Source of the DNA: Salinibaculum rarum
GTDB lineage: Archaea; Halobacteriota; Halobacteria; Halobacteriales; Haloarculaceae
DNA length: 64,000 nucleotides
Direction: 5' to 3'
Assembly: GCF_030505615.1 (NCBI RefSeq)
Contig: NZ_CP129992.1
Coordinates: forward strand, 2,728,001-2,792,000
The notes beneath the pieces are model-generated. The model was not told where the DNA came from. It ran no database searches and was given only the letters and a program-made list of their open reading frames with translations. The translations under genes were made by a program, and so were the position numbers. Each line of letters opens with the position of its first letter. Position 1 is the stretch's first letter. Positions 2,986 through 60,700 of this stretch are shown here, piece by piece.

Positions 2986-3828
2986 TCACTCCGTGAGGGT
3001 GAGGCAGGCGAGCGTGGCGACGATTGCTTCTTCGGTTCGCACCACCTCGCTGCCTTGATTCGGAACCGTATTCAGCCAGAGGTCGAATCGACCAGTCTCA
3101 CTGGCCTCTCCGATACGGTCGGCGTCGACGCCCAGGATGGCGGGAAGGCCCCGCTCTGGCGCGCCGAAGGCGACGGTCAGTTCCGGCCGACCGCTCGCAG
3201 CTATCGTCTCGACCAACTGGTCCAGACGTGCGACGTCGAGTGTCTCGCCGTACCGCGAAGCGGCGACGGCCAGTCCCGAATCGTCGCGTGCGAGCGCCGA
3301 ATCGAGGTCCGCGGTGTCGACGGCGAATCCCGGTGGGGATTCGGCGACGAGCTTCGCGCGGACCGGCTCTCTCGAAGAGACTCTGACGGAGACGCGCTCC
3401 CCCTGCTCGACCCCCATATCATCGGGGACGGGCAGTGAGACCGGGTGTTGCAGTCCGCAATTGACCCGAACGCGACCATCAGTTCCGACCTCGGTCACGA
3501 TTCCCTGTCTTAACGACCCCGAACCCTCGGATCCGGAGCCGGTCTGTGAACGCACGCGGAGCGGCGGCAAGACGCCCGCGAACTCTAGTTCGTCCCGCTT
3601 ATCCCAGACCTCCTTTCGGAGGTATGGGGGCGTCGCGGCGTACCGGAGTACGGTTTCGACGAACCCCTCGTCCCATCTCCGGGTCCCGTCTGGGTCCGGA
3701 TAGACCGTGAGTCGGTCGACCCGGAAGACGGTGGCCGCGCGGGCCACGTAGCCGATTTTGCGAGTTGCCTCGCGTTTGTCCTCGGCTTCCCGGATGAGAG
3801 ACGACGGCACGAGTACGCTGACAGTCAT
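2986..3828 (-). CDS. SPOUT-family RNA methyltransferase (COG2106/DUF171 type) heading the S10 operon
   Basis: A 280-residue protein of the archaeal COG2106 family, related to eukaryotic SPOUT1/C9orf114. Members combine a SPOUT methyltransferase fold with an inserted OB-like domain and are thought to methylate rRNA. Visible here are an N-terminal strand region (MTVSVLVPSSLIREA), the TPPYLRKEVW segment, a beta-rich insert at about residues 105-165, and a C-terminal region with ELTVAFGAPERGLPAIL and LNTVPNQGSEVVRTEEAI, where the SAM-binding trefoil knot is expected. It is the first gene after the operon promoter and is separated from uL3 by 3 bases. The exact rRNA target cannot be read from the sequence. 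Confidence 0.85.
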   Translation of the reverse strand: MTVSVLVPSSLIREAEDKREATRKIGYVARAATVFRVDRLTVYPDPDGTRRWDEGFVETVLRYAATPPYLRKEVWDKRDELEFAGVLPPLRVRSQTGSGSEGSGSLRQGIVTEVGTDGRVRVNCGLQHPVSLPVPDDMGVEQGERVSVRVSSREPVRAKLVAESPPGFAVDTADLDSALARDDSGLAVAASRYGETLDVARLDQLVETIAASGRPELTVAFGAPERGLPAILGVDADRIGEASETGRFDLWLNTVPNQGSEVVRTEEAIVATLACLTLTE

Positions 3829-3883
3829 GCCGTAACGCTTCCACGTCGCGCCACTAGACTGTGCCGATTACTCCCCATCCCTA

Positions 3884-3893
3884 CCTTAAAAAG
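3884..3893 (-). promoter_or_regulatory. TATA-like box of the S10-type ribosomal operon
   Basis: On the minus strand this reads CTTTTTAAGG, the only strongly AT-rich block between the SPOUT gene start (3828) and the ferritin-like gene. A start site about 25 bases downstream would leave a leader of roughly 35 nt before the first ATG. Confidence 0.5.
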
Positions 3894-4036
3894 TACGCGC
3901 TTCACGCGCGCGCTGAGACGCGTTCACACGGACCAGATAGGCTCCGAAACCCTGTCTCGCGGTCTCGTGGTCCAGTGTCGGGACCGAACCCAGTCGGCAG
4001 AACACACTTGCACCCGGGACACGAAGGGCCGATGTC

Positions 4037-4492
4037 ATGTCTACAGACCGCGTCATCGAAATCCTCCGGAAGGCGTACAGCGACGAAATCGAGACCGTGA
4101 TGAATTACCAGACGAACGCAATCGTCCTCGACGGCGTGCGGGCCGAAGAAATCAAAGAGAGTCTCAAGCAGGACATCCAGGAAGAGCTGGCACACGCCGA
4201 ACAGTTGGGCCAGCGGCTCAAACAACTCGACGCGCGCCCGCCAGGGTCGTCCGAGTTTACCGCCCGGCAGGACTCGCTGCAGCCACCAGAGGATTCCACG
4301 GACGTCCTCGCGGTCATCAACGGCGTTCTCGATGCTGAAGAGGACGCCATCGCAACGTATCGTGACCTCATCGACGCTGCCAAGGAAGCCAACGACCCCG
4401 TCACCGAAGACCTCGCTGTGACCATCCTCGCCGAAGAGGAAGCCCACCTGACCGAGTTCCGTGGCTTCCAGAAAGAATACCAGGACGACTGA
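4037..4492 (+). CDS. Ferritin-like di-iron domain protein
   Basis: A 151-residue, mostly helical protein with the four-helix ferritin-like pattern. It has an early glutamate helix (YSDEIETVMNYQ), an EELAHAEQLGQRL helix, a third AEEDAIATYRDLI helix and a fourth AEEEAHLTEFRGF helix. The two E-x-x-H-type motifs are the expected di-iron ligands. Similar archaeal proteins are annotated as bacterioferritin/DPS-like or rubrerythrin-like and handle iron or peroxide. It stands alone on the plus strand, divergent from the ribosomal operon. Whether it forms a storage cage or an oxidase cannot be decided. Confidence 0.8.
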   Translation: MSTDRVIEILRKAYSDEIETVMNYQTNAIVLDGVRAEEIKESLKQDIQEELAHAEQLGQRLKQLDARPPGSSEFTARQDSLQPPEDSTDVLAVINGVLDAEEDAIATYRDLIDAAKEANDPVTEDLAVTILAEEEAHLTEFRGFQKEYQDD

Positions 4493-4802
4493 CCGACCCG
4501 CCGACAGCCACGTCCGACCACCGACAACACCAGTTTTCCTGCATAGTGAGTCCATTTTCAGTTCGGGACTGAACTGTGTGGCTGCCAGTGTGTCAGCCTA
4601 TGCGACTGATCGCAGTCCGCAACCCCCAGTTCGGGACAGTCGAATCGGTTCGGGCGGCGATATTCTCCGTGACCGCATGCATGTTTCGTCGCTTGTCGCG
4701 GAGTCGACACACGCTGTGTGCTGTAAGATGGCGTGACTTGCGAGAAAAGGGGCAGAAATCACGTCATCAAGCGGTATTTTTTGGCAAGAGTTTTCAACTA
4801 AG
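4493..4802. other. Gene-free interval after the ferritin-like gene
   Basis: About 310 bases with lower GC than the surroundings and no convincing reading frame on either strand. Short frames exist but have no haloarchaeal acidic composition. It ends with a T-rich block (GTATTTTTTGG, about 4775-4785) that could act as a TATA box for a plus-strand RNA beginning near 4803. Confidence 0.5.
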
Positions 4803-5053
4803 GCCATAATGGCTGACCTGCCGCGCAAGTGCGGCAGAGTTGGAGTGCACACGGGCAACTGGACTCGTACACCGAATGGACACCCCCCTCAAGCCTGTGC
4901 CCCTCACAGACTCTCTCCCCTCATCCATTCGGAGTCCTGCCCGGCACTTCTTGGAGATACCACTCGACACTGAGCAGTAGCGGGTTCGCAAGCCGCTGGA
5001 CGAGCGGTGCTTGCTACATCGTAGTCTGCTCTCGTTTCAGCCGTCGAAACGAG
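4803..5053 (+). ncRNA. Candidate structured non-coding RNA (hairpin chain)
   Basis: This non-coding block packs consecutive perfect hairpins: GCCA/TGGC (4803-4813), CTGCCGC/GCGGCAG (4818-4837), AGTTG/CAACT (4838-4860), a composite stem GGACT..CCGAATGGA/TCCATTCGG..AGTCC (4861-4937), CTGTG/CACAG (4895-4909), AGCGG/CCGCT (4979-4997), CTAC/GTAG (5014-5024) and CTCGTTTC/GAAACGAG (5031-5053). The large loop carries CCCCTCA three times, at 4885, 4900 and 4917. Strand is a guess, based on a T-rich promoter-like block at 4775-4785. It lacks the conserved signatures of RNase P and SRP RNA. Function is unknown. Confidence 0.45.
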
Positions 5054-5096
5054 GAGAACAGGGAGATGACACTCTACGTCGCGAAAGTTAGAGAAG

Positions 5097-5167
5097 TGCG
5101 CTGGCCGAGATTTGAACTCGGGTTAGGACCGTGGCAGGGTCCTGTGATACCACTACACCACCAGCGC
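5097..5167 (-). tRNA. tRNA-Gly (anticodon GCC)
   Basis: On the minus strand the cloverleaf is complete: acceptor GCGCTGG/CCAGCGC, D-arm GTG..CAC, anticodon stem GGACC/GGTCC around loop CTGCCAC (anticodon GCC), T-arm CCGAG/CTCGG with TTCAAAT, and discriminator A. No intron, and CCA is not encoded, as is usual in haloarchaea. Confidence 0.97.
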
Positions 5168-5455
5168 TCGGTTGCTCACCGCGAGCGTCCGTTGCACTAC
5201 GTTGTTGGAGGGATGGGAGATAAAAACGTTCCGAATCTCGGGACGGCAGAGTGACGAAGAGAGAACCGTCCCCGAGAGTTGCCGAATGGACGCATACGTG
5301 CCGTCCTGCCGTCTAAGCGGTCAGATTGGGATAGACTATCCCTTTGCCCGACCTGTGACAGCACGGCACACATAGCACATCGAGGAGTCGATTGTCATCG
5401 TCGTCCGCGCTGGTCGACCACGACAGTTAGGGGCGGGCGCGCCCTACCACCACCC

Positions 5456-5770
5456 ATGACAGCGAGTGGCTTTCTGACCGTCTCGCCGACAGTCGAGGGA
5501 AGCATGGCACCGGAGATAGCGAAGGCCGTCGACGCGCTGGAGGAGTTCGACGTCCGCTACGAGACGACCGCGATGGGAACCATGCTCGAAGCCGGGGACG
5601 CGGCGACGCTCTTTGCAGCCGCGCAGGGGGCACACGAGGCGGTCGACAGCGACCGCGTCGTCACCTTTCTGAAAGTCGACGACAAGCGCGCGACCGACGC
5701 CCCGATGGAAGAGAAAGTCGAGTCAGTCGAGGAGCACCTGGGCCGCGAGGCCAGCGGTGGCCCCGAGTAG
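5456..5770 (+). CDS. Thiamine-binding protein (MTH1187/YkoF-like, DUF77)
   Basis: 104 residues of the COG0011 family, small ferredoxin-like alpha-beta proteins that form tetramers and bind thiamine or related ligands. Recognisable features are the N-terminal SGFLTVSPTVEGSMAPEIAKAVDAL, the central YETTAMGTMLEAG, and the terminal VTFLKVDDKR strand. The ATG at 5456 is preferred over a longer frame because the upstream extension is basic and serine/proline-rich, unlike the acidic body, and the family begins at this point. Function in halophiles is inferred from the family. Confidence 0.85.
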   Translation: MTASGFLTVSPTVEGSMAPEIAKAVDALEEFDVRYETTAMGTMLEAGDAATLFAAAQGAHEAVDSDRVVTFLKVDDKRATDAPMEEKVESVEEHLGREASGGPE

Positions 5771-7963: not shown

Positions 7964-9607
7964 TTACTCTACACCGGTTACGTCGGTCACAGTTCCGACG
8001 CCTTTCGAACTACCCTCGCGGAAGACGAATCGCTGGCCCTCTTCGACGAGATACGGCCGGAACTTGAACTGGACGCGGGCCTTCCCGGAGTCGCCGGGCA
8101 GGAGTTGGCCTCCTTCGGGGTAAAACGCCGCGGCCTCGCTTGCCGTTTCGAGATGGACGACCGGTTCGTAGCCGTCGCCGATGCGGGTGGGATGGTTCAA
8201 CACCATCACCTCGGCTTCGAACTCCCTGACGGGGTCGGGGTCTGCGTCCCGCGGTAGCAGAACCATCCCGCGTTCGATGTCGGCCTCGTTGACGCCTTTC
8301 AGCGCGATGCCGACGATACGGCCGGCGCTGGCCTCGTCGACGCGGTGGTAGTGCATCTCGATAGAGCGGGCCTCTACCTCACGGAACCCACCGTCTGCCA
8401 TCGGCCCGAGCAGGAGTTCGTCGCCCGCTTCGACCTCGCCCGACTGGATGGTCCCGGAGGCGACGGCGCCGACACCGGTGACGTTGTAGCTCCGGTCGAC
8501 GTACATCCGGAACTGGCCGTGGTCTGCGGTGCCGGCGGTCTTCGGCAGGCGCTCGAACAGTTCGTCGAGTGTATCGAGCCCCTCCGTCGTGACGGCACTC
8601 GTCGTCAGGATTGGGACCACAGTCTCTGAAATCTCGTCGATGGCCGCCTCGACGCCGTGGCGTTCGACCCGCAGCGGCGTCTTCTCGGCATCCCGGAGCA
8701 GGCGCTCGACCTCCCGTTCGACTTCCAGCAGGCGCTCCTCGTCGACGATGTCGGCTTTGGTAATCGCGACGAGCGTCGGCAGGTCCGTCGCAAGCAGGAT
8801 GCCGAGATGTTCGCGTGTCGTCTTTGTCGGGCCGTCGTCGGCGGCAACGGTCAGGAGTCCGTAGTCGAGTTTCTGCCCGACCAGCCCGCGAATCGTCGTG
8901 CGGAGCCACGGCTCGTGGCCGACCGTATCGACGAAGGAGACGAGCCGATCCGCTTCCTCGACGATGCGAGCGCGGTCGCCCTTCCGGTGTGGGTTGTCCA
9001 TCCGAACGGGGCCGTCCTCGTCGAAGCCGTAGACGCCGTAGGAGAGGTCCGCGGACAGCCCGCGCTCGATTTCGTGGGGCTGGACGTCCAGAAAGCTCCG
9101 CGTGCCCCCCTGGCCGTCGTCGGCTTCCCCGGTCACGAGCGACCCGACGAGCGTCGACTTGCCGTGGTCGACGTGGCCTGCTGTCCCGACGACGATGTGG
9201 GCGTCGTCAGTCATTACGGTCCCTTCGGTGATAGTGGCGACGCCGACTAATCCGCCGGCAGAGCCGTCGTCGTCGGTGTCGGCGTGGCCCTCCTCGTCGA
9301 CGCCCCACGTCTGGACCTCGTCGATGTGTGCGCCAGCCTCCTCTGCAAGCAGGGAGAGGACGTCCATCGACTCGGAGAAGTCTTCGGGGACGATACCGGC
9401 GATGCCGCCATCGTCGGTGACGCCGACGACGTAGGTGGCCTCGCCGTCGCCCGAGAGGACGCGGTGGCGCAACTGGGCGGCGAGACTCTCTCGCCGGCCC
9501 TCTGCGAGGTGCAGGTCTTTCGTGAGCCGCTCTTTGAACTCGACGCTGCCGCCCTCTTTTTCGCCGCGGTCGAGCGCGCGGCGAAGGACGGCCCGGTCGG
9601 GGCTCAT
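7964..9607 (-). CDS. GTPBP1-like translational GTPase (EF-1alpha related)
   Basis: 547-residue GTPase of the COG5258 family. The N-terminal 130 residues are family-specific (KERLTKDLHLAEGRRESLAAQL, a regulatory segment). The G1 loop GHVDHGKS is at about residues 144-151, G3 is DTVGHEPW, G4 is TKAD, and EF-Tu-like beta-barrel domains 2 and 3 follow (RMYVDRSYNVTGVGAVASGT and the C-terminal GKARVQFKFRPYLVEEGQRF). The eukaryotic homologues GTPBP1/2 act in ribosome rescue and mRNA decay; the archaeal role is not settled. The ATG at 9607 is chosen over an upstream start because a TATA-like box sits 24 bases before it. Confidence 0.88.
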   Translation of the reverse strand: MSPDRAVLRRALDRGEKEGGSVEFKERLTKDLHLAEGRRESLAAQLRHRVLSGDGEATYVVGVTDDGGIAGIVPEDFSESMDVLSLLAEEAGAHIDEVQTWGVDEEGHADTDDDGSAGGLVGVATITEGTVMTDDAHIVVGTAGHVDHGKSTLVGSLVTGEADDGQGGTRSFLDVQPHEIERGLSADLSYGVYGFDEDGPVRMDNPHRKGDRARIVEEADRLVSFVDTVGHEPWLRTTIRGLVGQKLDYGLLTVAADDGPTKTTREHLGILLATDLPTLVAITKADIVDEERLLEVEREVERLLRDAEKTPLRVERHGVEAAIDEISETVVPILTTSAVTTEGLDTLDELFERLPKTAGTADHGQFRMYVDRSYNVTGVGAVASGTIQSGEVEAGDELLLGPMADGGFREVEARSIEMHYHRVDEASAGRIVGIALKGVNEADIERGMVLLPRDADPDPVREFEAEVMVLNHPTRIGDGYEPVVHLETASEAAAFYPEGGQLLPGDSGKARVQFKFRPYLVEEGQRFVFREGSSKGVGTVTDVTGVE

Positions 9608-57748: not shown

Positions 57749-60700
57749 ATGAGTTCCGAGCTCGGCGCGGACGAACTCACCCTGCCAATCAAACGAGTCG
57801 AGGGGGACACCCTCGAAGACCGTCTGACCGGCAACGCGTATCACAACATCCTGCCCGCTCGCTACCTTCGCAAAGATTCGAACGGGGACCTCGTCGAACA
57901 GCAGGAGGACCTGTTCGACCGCGTCGCCAAGAACATCGCACTCGCCGAGGCAGTGTTCGAGGCACGCAACGAGGACATCGACATCGAGGTGTCGCCCGAC
58001 CAGCTCAAGCCCGACCACCCGCGCCGTGACGAACTCGCCGCAGAAGTCTTCGGCAAGGGCACGACCGTCGACACCGACACCACGACGACGCTCTCGGAGT
58101 ACAACGTCAACAAGTTCGCCTACGAGACGATCGTCCCCGAGCTACCCGACGATGTGCAGGACCACGTCCAGTCTATCGCCGGGCAGTTCCAGGACCTGAT
58201 GGAGAATCTCTCCTTTATGCCGAACTCGCCGACGCTGATGAACGCCGGCGACGAACTCCAGCAGCTCTCTGCCTGTTTCGTCGACTCGCCTGCCGACGAC
58301 ATCGACGACATCCACCAGACCGCAAAGGAGGCCGCACAGGTCTTCCAGAGCGGCGGCGGCATGGGCTATGCCTTCTGGAAGCTCCGGCCCTACGGCGACC
58401 CCGTCGGTTCGACCGGCGGTATCGCGTCGGGTCCGATTACGTTCATGCGCACGTACGACCAGATGTGCGAGACCATCGCACAGGGCGGTGCCCGCCGCGG
58501 TGCCCAGATGGGCGTCATGCGCGTCTCGCACCCGGACGTCATCCAGTTCATCCACGCCAAGAACAAGGACGTCTCGCTGGCCCACACCCTGCGCCTGAAC
58601 GACCCCGACGACTACACGCACAACTCTTTTGCCGAAGCACTCGAGGAGTCGCGTGAACTCATCGACGACGAGGGCCGCGTCCCGAAGCACCTTCGCAACG
58701 CCGTCGAGGGACATCTCTCGAATTTCAACATCTCCGTCGGCGTCACCGACGCGTTCATGGAGGCGCTGAAAAACGACGAGGAGTTCACGTTCACGAACCC
58801 GCGGACCGAAGAGCCACACATCGCCACCGAACAGACCAAAGAGCTCTACGAGATGTTCGACCTCGGCGAGCACGTCGAGGTCGGCGAAGTGCTCTCGATT
58901 CCCGCGGAACTCATCTGGGAGCGCATCATCCAGGGCGCCCACGAGAACGGCGAACCGGGCGTCATCTACCTCGAACGCGTCAACAAGAAACACTCCTTCG
59001 ACGTGGAGGAACACCCCGACCACCAGATTCTCGCAACCAATCCCTGCGGCGAGCAGCCACTCGAGGAGTACGAGGCTTGTAACCTCGGCCACATCAACCT
59101 CTCGACGCTGGCCGCCGAGGGTGCGCCCGACTGGCGCGTCTGGTCGGAGGACAACCTCGACGACTACGGAACCCTCCAGGCGGCTATCGGCGCGTTCCTC
59201 GAGGACGCAATCGACTGGGAGGAGTTCAACCGCCGCATCGAACTCGGCACGCGCTTCCTCGAGAACGTCGTCACGATGTCCGACTTCCCGGTCCCCGAAA
59301 TCGAACAGAAGGTTCGGGAGATGCGCAAGATCGGACTGGGCATCATGGGACTGGCACAGCTGTACATCCAGCTGGGCATGAAATACGGCAGCGACGAGGC
59401 CAACGAGACGGCCCGGCAGCTGATGTCCCACATCAACCATCAGTCCAAGTGGACCAGCCACGAACTCGCGACAGAGCGTGGCTCCTTCGCGGAGTGGGAC
59501 AACTCGAAGTACGCCGACCCCACCGAATACGAGGAGTGGTTCGAACACCACACCGGCCTCGACGCCGAGGAGTGGGCCGACGGCTTTGCCATCCGCAACC
59601 ACAACACGACGACCATCGCACCGACCGGGACCACGTCGATGGTCGGGAACACGACCGGCGGCTGTGAGCCGATTTACAACGTCGCCTACTACAAGAACGT
59701 CTCCGACGACGTGCAGGGCGACGAGATGCTCGTCGAGTTCGACGACTACTTCCTCCGGACGCTGGAGGACAACGACATCGACGTCGACGCCGTCAAAGAA
59801 GAGGCCCAGGAGCAGATGGCCACAAACGAGTTCAACGGCGTCGAAGGGCTCTCGACGGTCCCGGACGCTATCGGCGAACTGTTCGTGACGACCGGCGCGC
59901 TCTCGGCCAAGGAACACGCCGGCGTCCAGACGGCCTGTCAGACGGGCGTCGACTCGGCGATTTCGAAGACGGTCAACGCACCGAACGACTCCACGACCGA
60001 AGACGCAAAGGAAGTCTTCGAGTGGGTCTACGACCACGGTGGCAAGGGCGTCACCTACTACCGCGACGGCACCCGGTCGAAGCAGGTGCTGACCACGCGT
60101 GCGGACAACGCCGAGTTCGCAGACGAGGCAGAGGCCGCAGAGACGCTCGTCGAGCAAATCGAGGAGGTCTTCGGCGGCATCGAAGCCTTCGTCGAGAGCG
60201 ACGAGGTCGAGGCAGTGCTCGACCAGCAAGTCGAGGAGATTCTGGGCAGCGTCGACGGCGACCGCTCGCAGTTCGCCCAGAAGCAGACCCGCCCGGACGT
60301 GCTCCACGGCGTCACCCAGCGCATCGACACCGGCTACGGGAAACTCTACGTCAACATCAACGAGGACCCTAAACAGGAGCGACCGTTCGAACTCTTCGCC
60401 AACATCGGCAACTCCGGTGGCTTTACCGCCTCCTTCACCGAGGCGCTGGCAAAGACCATCTCGACGGCGCTTCGCGCGGGTGTCGACCCGTGGGAAATCG
60501 CCGACGAACTCCAGGGCATCCGGTCGCCGAAGGTCGCCTGGGACAAAGGCGAGCAGATTCAGTCCATCCCGGACGCCATCGGCACCGCGATGCGTCGCTA
60601 CCTCGAAGGCGACGTCGAACGAGCCTACCCACAGCAGGCGACGCTCGAAGAGACCGCCGAAGAGGCCGACCAATCGGCAGACGGGCAGGCGACGGTCGAC

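What the first reader, a model, noticed from the sequence alone, without database searches (positions are those of the whole stretch)
4803..5053. Dense hairpin chain with triple CCCCTCA loop motif: candidate new haloarchaeal ncRNA
No gene fits, yet at least seven perfect stems (4-9 bp each) follow one another. A composite 14-bp stem (GGACT/AGTCC plus CCGAATGGA/TCCATTCGG) presents three CCCCTCA copies at 4885, 4900 and 4917, two of them in or beside loops. C-rich loops could base-pair with GAGGGG-like Shine-Dalgarno sites (inference); read on the other strand they would be three SD-like TGAGGGG. Lack of RNase P or SRP signatures makes it unlikely to be a known housekeeping RNA.
Basis: partly seen in the sequence, partly recalled or inferred. 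Interest (0 to 1): 0.72.

Follow-up and report, generated by a model that had tools for sequence, protein, structure and literature searches.

The report
Orphan haloarchaeal hairpin, possible regulatory RNA
Between a ferritin-like gene and a glycine tRNA gene, in a stretch that differs between related salt-loving archaea, lies a sequence that is predicted to fold strongly and to expose three copies of one C-rich motif; it is likely a species-specific small regulatory RNA, but no relative of it was found and its transcription is untested.

Summary
The structure is as described. On the + strand, 4842-4950 is predicted to form a 27-pair stem, with CCCCTCA at 4885, 4900 and 4917 and every CCCC unpaired. 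Window 4814-4955 folds better than 200 of 200 dinucleotide shuffles (z -4.42; minus strand -2.82); the 3' part (4955-5060) does not (z -0.95). The best TATA-like box of the intergenic region (4777) would start + strand transcription near 4803-4806, where the hairpins begin.

Covariation cannot be tested: a covariance model of the hairpin finds only itself in 392 genomes of the order, and no credible DNA relative turned up. The neighbourhood suggests why. In 22 of 23 related loci with the neighbouring methyltransferase gene, tRNA-Gly points away from it 0.2-0.75 kb off. In Salinibaculum litoreum and in this window the tRNA is inverted and different DNA fills the gap: a type IIG-like restriction enzyme there, the ferritin-like gene and this hairpin here.

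Shine-Dalgarno targeting is not supported: TGAGGGG before ATG is rarer than the reversed control (23 vs 57). Folds this strong occur about every 15 kb in this genome.

Verdict: candidate species-restricted sRNA (about 40%), otherwise palindromic DNA of a variable islet. Modest interest.

The parts
4777..4784 (+). TATA-like promoter box (TTTTTTGG); predicted start of transcription about 4803-4806 (inferred)
   Evidence: best + strand score (8.4) in 4490-5250 under a box model learnt from the upstream regions of 292 acidic ORFs of this genome's sample; 0.18 such sites per kb per strand. The best box before the neighbouring tRNA-Gly scores 7.9.
4803..4813 (+). short 5' hairpin GCCA-TAA-TGGC
   Evidence: Minimum-energy fold; may lie partly outside the transcript if it starts at 4806
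4815..4841 (+). second hairpin (CTGCCGC / GCGGCAG core)
   Evidence: Fold; perfect 7-bp stem
4842..4950 (+). long bulged hairpin of 27 pairs, with an inner 7-pair hairpin
   Evidence: Fold, (4814-4955: z -4.42, 0 of 200 shuffles as stable)
4885..4891 (+). CCCCTCA copy 1, left side of the internal loop
   Evidence: CCCC unpaired probability about 1.0
4900..4906 (+). CCCCTCA copy 2, apical loop (CCCCT) and first two bases of the stem
   Evidence: CCCC unpaired about 1.0; whole motif 0.72
4917..4923 (+). CCCCTCA copy 3, right side of the internal loop
   Evidence: CCCC unpaired about 1.0
4932..4945 (+). stretch of the 3' arm complementary in 13 of 14 positions to the upstream ferritin-like CDS (4262-4275)
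   Evidence: rank. Predicted fully paired inside the hairpin
4955..5053 (+). 3' part with weaker stems, including the 8-bp hairpin CTCGTTTC/GAAACGAG at 5031-5053; not beyond chance
   Evidence: z -0.95
4809..4973 (+). ATG frame of 54 codons across the hairpin (rival reading: leaderless small protein)
   Evidence: no homologue; GC3 0.57
4037..4492 (+). neighbour: ferritin-like protein gene, 151 aa
   Evidence: Pfam Ferritin 3.7e-23
5096..5167 (-). neighbour: tRNA-Gly (GCC), inverted compared with most related loci

Best explanation
The block is likely a small regulatory RNA gene restricted to this species or its nearest kin, predicted to be read on the + strand from about 4803-4806, whose long hairpin would hold three equal C-rich sites out for pairing with G-rich stretches of target mRNAs. 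Shown by the calls: the intergenic position, the above-chance predicted fold of 4814-4955 (stronger on + than on -), the threefold CCCCTCA, the best promoter-like box of the region just upstream, no Rfam match above threshold besides the tRNA, no relatives found, and the site in a gap next to tRNA-Gly whose content differs from that of S. litoreum. Inferred: that it is transcribed, where it starts and ends, that the C-rich sites pair with other RNAs, and that three copies serve as redundant contact sites. Targets are unknown; one lead is the neighbouring ferritin-like mRNA.
For: Fold z -4.42, 0 of 200 shuffles, against -2.82 on the other strand. Threefold 7-mer in 2 of 5000 shuffles, each CCCC unpaired at probability about 1.0. 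Best + strand TATA-like box at 4777, 0.18 sites per kb per strand genome-wide, about 26-29 nt before the first hairpin. Intergenic between a ferritin-like gene and tRNA-Gly. Frames across it have no Pfam match, the 54-codon one no homologue. Complementarity to the adjacent ferritin-like CDS reached by 2 of 200 sampled genes (0 of 63 of similar length) and by 3 of 200 codon shuffles. Low conservation fits the kind: in H. mediterranei 27% of verified sRNAs had relatives in other Halobacteria and the remaining 63 none (PMC5852579, passages); sRNA132 is exclusive to the genus Haloferax (PMC6560208, passages).
Against: No transcript data. No relative by covariance model in 391 other genomes of the order or, with looser filters, in 36 other relatives including the one other genome of the genus, so no covariation can be shown. 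No terminator-like site in 4490-5260 (a bacterial-type consensus). About 30 equally strong folds in the 457 kb sampled. TGAGGGG is not enriched before ATG (23 against 57 control). The ferritin-complementary stretch is predicted to be wholly paired inside the hairpin, and a duplex energy test is weaker (13 of 300 codon shuffles as good). The 3' part folds no better than chance.
Confidence: 0.4

Rival explanations
1. Untranscribed or incidentally transcribed palindromic DNA of a variable islet beside tRNA-Gly, for instance the remnant of a mobile element; the hairpin has no RNA function.
For: In 22 of 23 loci with the flanking methyltransferase gene tRNA-Gly diverges from it at 209-749 bp (first tRNA-Gly counted); in S. 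litoreum (L002) it is inverted and 5.4 kb away, with a type IIG restriction-enzyme-like gene between; in the window it is inverted and about 1.27 kb away, with the ferritin-like gene and the hairpin between. The S. litoreum locus shares no detected DNA with 3932-5094. Equally strong folds are common in this genome. No relatives.
Against: The hairpin occurs once in its genome, which is unlike a transposon end or a dispersed palindrome. No integrase-type partial copy of the tRNA was found in the genome (besides the tRNA itself one 57-nt match at 78% and three of 14-17 nt). No plasmid or phage match. A promoter-like box sits at the expected distance.
Confidence: 0.38
2. A leaderless mRNA for a 54-residue protein (4809-4973), starting 3-6 nt before its ATG; the hairpin lies within the coding sequence.
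For: The TATA-like box at 4777 stands where leaderless genes of this genome have theirs: A+T peaks 29-25 nt before start codons, and the box begins 32 nt before this ATG. The frame spans the whole hairpin.
Against: No homologue in the large protein search. Order-wide, 11 of 392 genomes incl. its own had a match at E 0.01 or better where about 4 are expected; the 9 foreign loci I looked at show short biased-composition matches. No Pfam match. GC at third positions 0.57 against a mean of 0.77 in 359 acidic ORFs; 5.7% of 1869 equal-length gene pieces are as low, so this is not decisive. A coding role does not explain the strand-biased fold.
Confidence: 0.1
3. The minus strand is the product: the same structure with three TGAGGGG copies, as a read-through tail of tRNA-Gly or a separate RNA.
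For: The minus strand also folds better than 199 of 200 shuffles (z -2.82), and tRNA-Gly is transcribed towards the block.
Against: The + strand has the better z-score, the best minus-strand box in 4490-5250 belongs to the tRNA position, not to the block, and TGAGGGG shows no start-codon association.
Confidence: 0.08

Closest known systems
Intergenic trans-acting sRNAs of haloarchaea (Haloferax volcanii, H. mediterranei), e.g. sRNA132
   Same: Intergenic, a few hundred nt at most, structured, with a BRE/TATA-type upstream signal, mostly without relatives outside species or genus (PMC5892119, PMC6560208, PMC5852579: passages; PMC3956466: search listing).
   Different: Those were seen as transcripts; this one is a prediction from sequence. 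No sequence or Rfam link to any of them was found.
LhrC of Listeria monocytogenes (three redundant CU-rich, UCCC-containing sites in loops and a single strand)
   Same: Works-like comparison only: three copies of one C-rich motif held unpaired by a hairpin RNA (PMC4132741, passages; here).
   Different: LhrC blocks a Shine-Dalgarno site in a bacterium and is multicopy; here the block is single copy, the motif complement is not enriched before start codons, and 72% of H. volcanii transcripts are leaderless (PMC6560208, passage). No common descent is claimed.
Box C/D guide RNAs of archaea
   Same: Small structured archaeal RNAs (recalled).
   Different: No box C followed by box D: the one box-C-like site per strand (one mismatch) lies outside the hairpin, with no CTGA downstream in 4741-5100.

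Membership tests
haloarchaeal intergenic sRNA | lies between genes, not a known RNA family | tested here: met
haloarchaeal intergenic sRNA | archaeal promoter signal (TATA near -29) before the RNA | tested here: met
   Box at 4777; predicted start only, box model learnt from ORF upstreams, no mapped 5' end
haloarchaeal intergenic sRNA | a transcript exists | not testable with these tools
haloarchaeal intergenic sRNA | does not encode a protein | tested here: inconclusive
   54-codon frame without homologue, low GC3 but within the range of real gene pieces
conserved structured ncRNA family | relatives with compensatory base changes | tested here: not met
   No relative: 1 of 392 genomes, itself; 1 of 37, itself; only 19-42 nt pieces beyond itself
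Rfam families incl. RNase P RNA and SRP RNA | match above the family's gathering score | tested here: not met
   in 4500-5300 only the tRNA passes
LhrC-type sRNA | three redundant C-rich sites, unpaired | tested here: met
   (motif CCCCTCA rather than CUCCC/UCCC)
LhrC-type sRNA | pairs with Shine-Dalgarno regions of targets | tested here: not met
   23 matches of TGAGGGG 3-12 nt before ATG (two share one TGAGGGG) against 57 for the reversed pattern
box C/D guide RNA | box C (RTGATGA) followed by box D (CTGA) | tested here: not met

The most novel reading that the evidence does not exclude
An islet-borne archaeal sRNA that carries three redundant C-rich contact sites, an archaeal counterpart by convergence of multi-site bacterial sRNAs, acquired beside tRNA-Gly together with a ferritin-like gene whose mRNA it also controls.
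Probability: 0.07. Interest if true: 0.55.

Novelty: new member of a known kind. Interest (0 to 1): 0.25.

Why it matters
If transcribed, it would be one more example of how quickly haloarchaea gain and lose small RNAs, here tied to a visible rearrangement beside a tRNA gene, and its three equal loops would give a simple handle (mutate one, two or three) on how archaeal sRNAs touch their targets, which is little studied. If not, it is a caution: folds this strong occur about every 15 kb in this genome, so a hairpin alone is weak evidence for an RNA gene.

Tried and rejected
Known RNA: Rfam at gathering and at E up to 10 gave, near the block, only the tRNA, a sub-threshold match overlapping the tRNA, and a microRNA model at 13.9 bits (gathering score 100) at 4804-4857, taken as chance.

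Conserved RNA family: DNA searches in 38 relatives, 2 genomes of the genus at E up to 10, 392 genomes of the order at E up to 0.05, plasmids and phages. In one search, 42 of 392 genomes had a match where about 20 would be expected; beyond the block itself all are pieces of 19-42 nt, best E 0.0017. I looked at 11 of these loci: 10 lie in an open frame of more than 80 codons, so I read them as shared coding words; the rest I did not examine. Covariance model from the single sequence in 392 genomes, in 37 with looser filters, and in 36 held loci: only the block itself. A one-sequence model has limited reach.

Triple motif as a family mark: the pattern is in 2 of 146 family genomes (this one, and a 15-nt tandem repeat in another), against 11 matches of the reversed control in 9 genomes. 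Rejected as a family signature.

Viral origin: CCGAATGGA with TCCATTCGG 25-55 nt apart is in 6 viral contigs, none of which matches the model; taken as chance.

Mobile element with tRNA attachment site: no partial tRNA-Gly copy in the genome. A 19-nt direct repeat (17 of 19) at 4489-4507 and 5474-5492 was not followed.

Box C/D RNA: rejected. Small protein: see rivals. Shine-Dalgarno targeting: not supported. Paper search for CCCCUCA with archaea: no paper.

Full report
What is there. The block lies in a non-coding gap (4493-5095) between a ferritin-like gene (4037-4492, +; Pfam Ferritin, 3.7e-23) and tRNA-Gly(GCC) (5096-5167, -). On the other side of the tRNA come a thiamine-binding-protein-like gene and mch. 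The Mch protein is 83% identical to that of Salinibaculum litoreum, so the window most likely comes from that genus (inference).

The observation. CCCCTCA stands at 4885, 4900 and 4917. The + strand of 4814-4955 folds at -60.6 kcal/mol, z -4.42, with 0 of 200 shuffles as stable. The main feature is a stem of 27 pairs, 4842-4880 with 4924-4950, with three bulges on the 5' side and none on the 3' side, capped by a large internal loop and an inner 7-pair hairpin. Copies 1 and 3 of the motif are the two sides of the internal loop and copy 2 begins in the apical loop; every CCCC is unpaired at probability about 1.0 in three different cuts of the sequence. The minus strand scores lower (z -2.82). 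The remaining 3' third does not fold beyond chance.

How unusual. Any 7-mer three times within 45 nt is found in 2 of 5000 shuffles and in 8 of 1806 own-genome tiles. But in 457 kb of the same genome 40 of 20,750 window-strands, about 30 distinct sites, fold at least as well after correction for composition. The number of perfect stems alone is ordinary. So the motif repeat is more remarkable than the fold.

Promoter. Upstream regions of 292 acidic ORFs of the sample show an A+T peak 29-25 nt before the start codon; a box model learnt from them has its best + strand hit of the region at 4777 (TTTTTTGG), better than the best box in front of tRNA-Gly. Such hits occur 0.18 times per kb and strand. 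This predicts a start near 4803-4806, the very beginning of the hairpins. No terminator-like site was found by a bacterial-type scan.

Coding? The predicted start is also a few bases before an ATG that opens a 54-codon frame (4809-4973), so a leaderless small-protein mRNA must be considered. No homologue was found, the order-wide matches look like noise, no Pfam match, and third-position GC is low (0.57 against a mean of 0.77; 5.7% of equal-length pieces of real genes are as low). I hold this at 10%.

Relatives. None. DNA: 1 of 38 relatives, itself; in 392 genomes of the order only pieces of 19-42 nt besides itself, of which 10 of the 11 looked at lie in open frames. Covariance model: 1 of 392 and 1 of 37 with looser filters, itself each time. 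Plasmids and phages: no match. The one other genome of the genus has the ferritin-like gene elsewhere (86% identical), and in a BLAST comparison only the coding sequence aligns, not the DNA after it.

Why there are none. Of 72 loci around mch, 23 also hold the methyltransferase gene that precedes rpl3. In 22 of the 23 tRNA-Gly diverges from it at 209-749 bp (first tRNA-Gly counted where there are several); in S. litoreum it is inverted and 5.4 kb away. The window shows the same inverted tRNA, about 1.27 kb away. What lies between differs: a 1423-residue protein like type IIG restriction enzymes in S. litoreum, the ferritin-like gene and the hairpin here. The two loci align on both sides but not in between. 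So the block sits in an islet that changed within the genus. No partial tRNA copy marks it as an integrase target.

Mechanism. The best reading is a species-restricted sRNA, made on the + strand, that displays three equal C-rich sites. Multi-site C-rich display is known from LhrC of Listeria, where three UCCC sites pair with one G-rich target site (PMC4132741, passages). The Shine-Dalgarno version of this idea fails here: TGAGGGG 3-12 nt before ATG occurs 23 times in the genome (two matches share one TGAGGGG) against 57 for the reversed pattern, and 72% of H. volcanii transcripts are leaderless (PMC6560208, passage). In H. volcanii the predicted sRNA132 target sites lie within ORFs or 3'-UTRs (same paper). 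One lead of that kind: 4932-4945 is complementary in 13 of 14 positions to the ferritin-like CDS at 4262-4275, a match reached by 2 of 200 sampled genes, by 0 of 63 of similar length and by 3 of 200 codon shuffles. It was noticed after the fact, the stretch is buried in the stem, and a duplex-energy test is weaker (13 of 300), so I keep it as a lead only.

What is known. H. [quoted passage not shown] If transcribed, this block is a new member of that known kind; nothing here requires a new kind of system.

Noticed in passing
window 3383-3482 (-); L002 1173-1272, L003 4978-5077, L007 5908-6007: Rfam L4-Archaeoglobi ribosomal leader matches well above threshold (71 bits in the window), yet lies inside the frame of the RNA methyltransferase gene upstream of rpl3, in all four loci searched; it may be an RNA signal inside a coding sequence or a coding-sequence match.
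   Followed up: partly
window 3829-5167; L002 1619-7116: tRNA-Gly(GCC) is inverted in the window and in S. litoreum relative to 22 of 23 related loci, with differing DNA between it and the methyltransferase gene.
   Followed up: partly
L002 2559-6830 (-): In S. litoreum a 1423-residue protein resembling type IIG restriction-modification and DrmMI proteins lies directly beside tRNA-Gly.
   Followed up: partly
window 4489-4507 and 5474-5492: 19-nt direct repeat, 17 of 19 identical, bracketing the hairpin and the tRNA.
   Followed up: no
window 58101-58242 (-), 3601-3742 (-), 9151-9292 (+): Other stretches of the window with folds stronger than that of the finding after correction for composition.
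   Followed up: no
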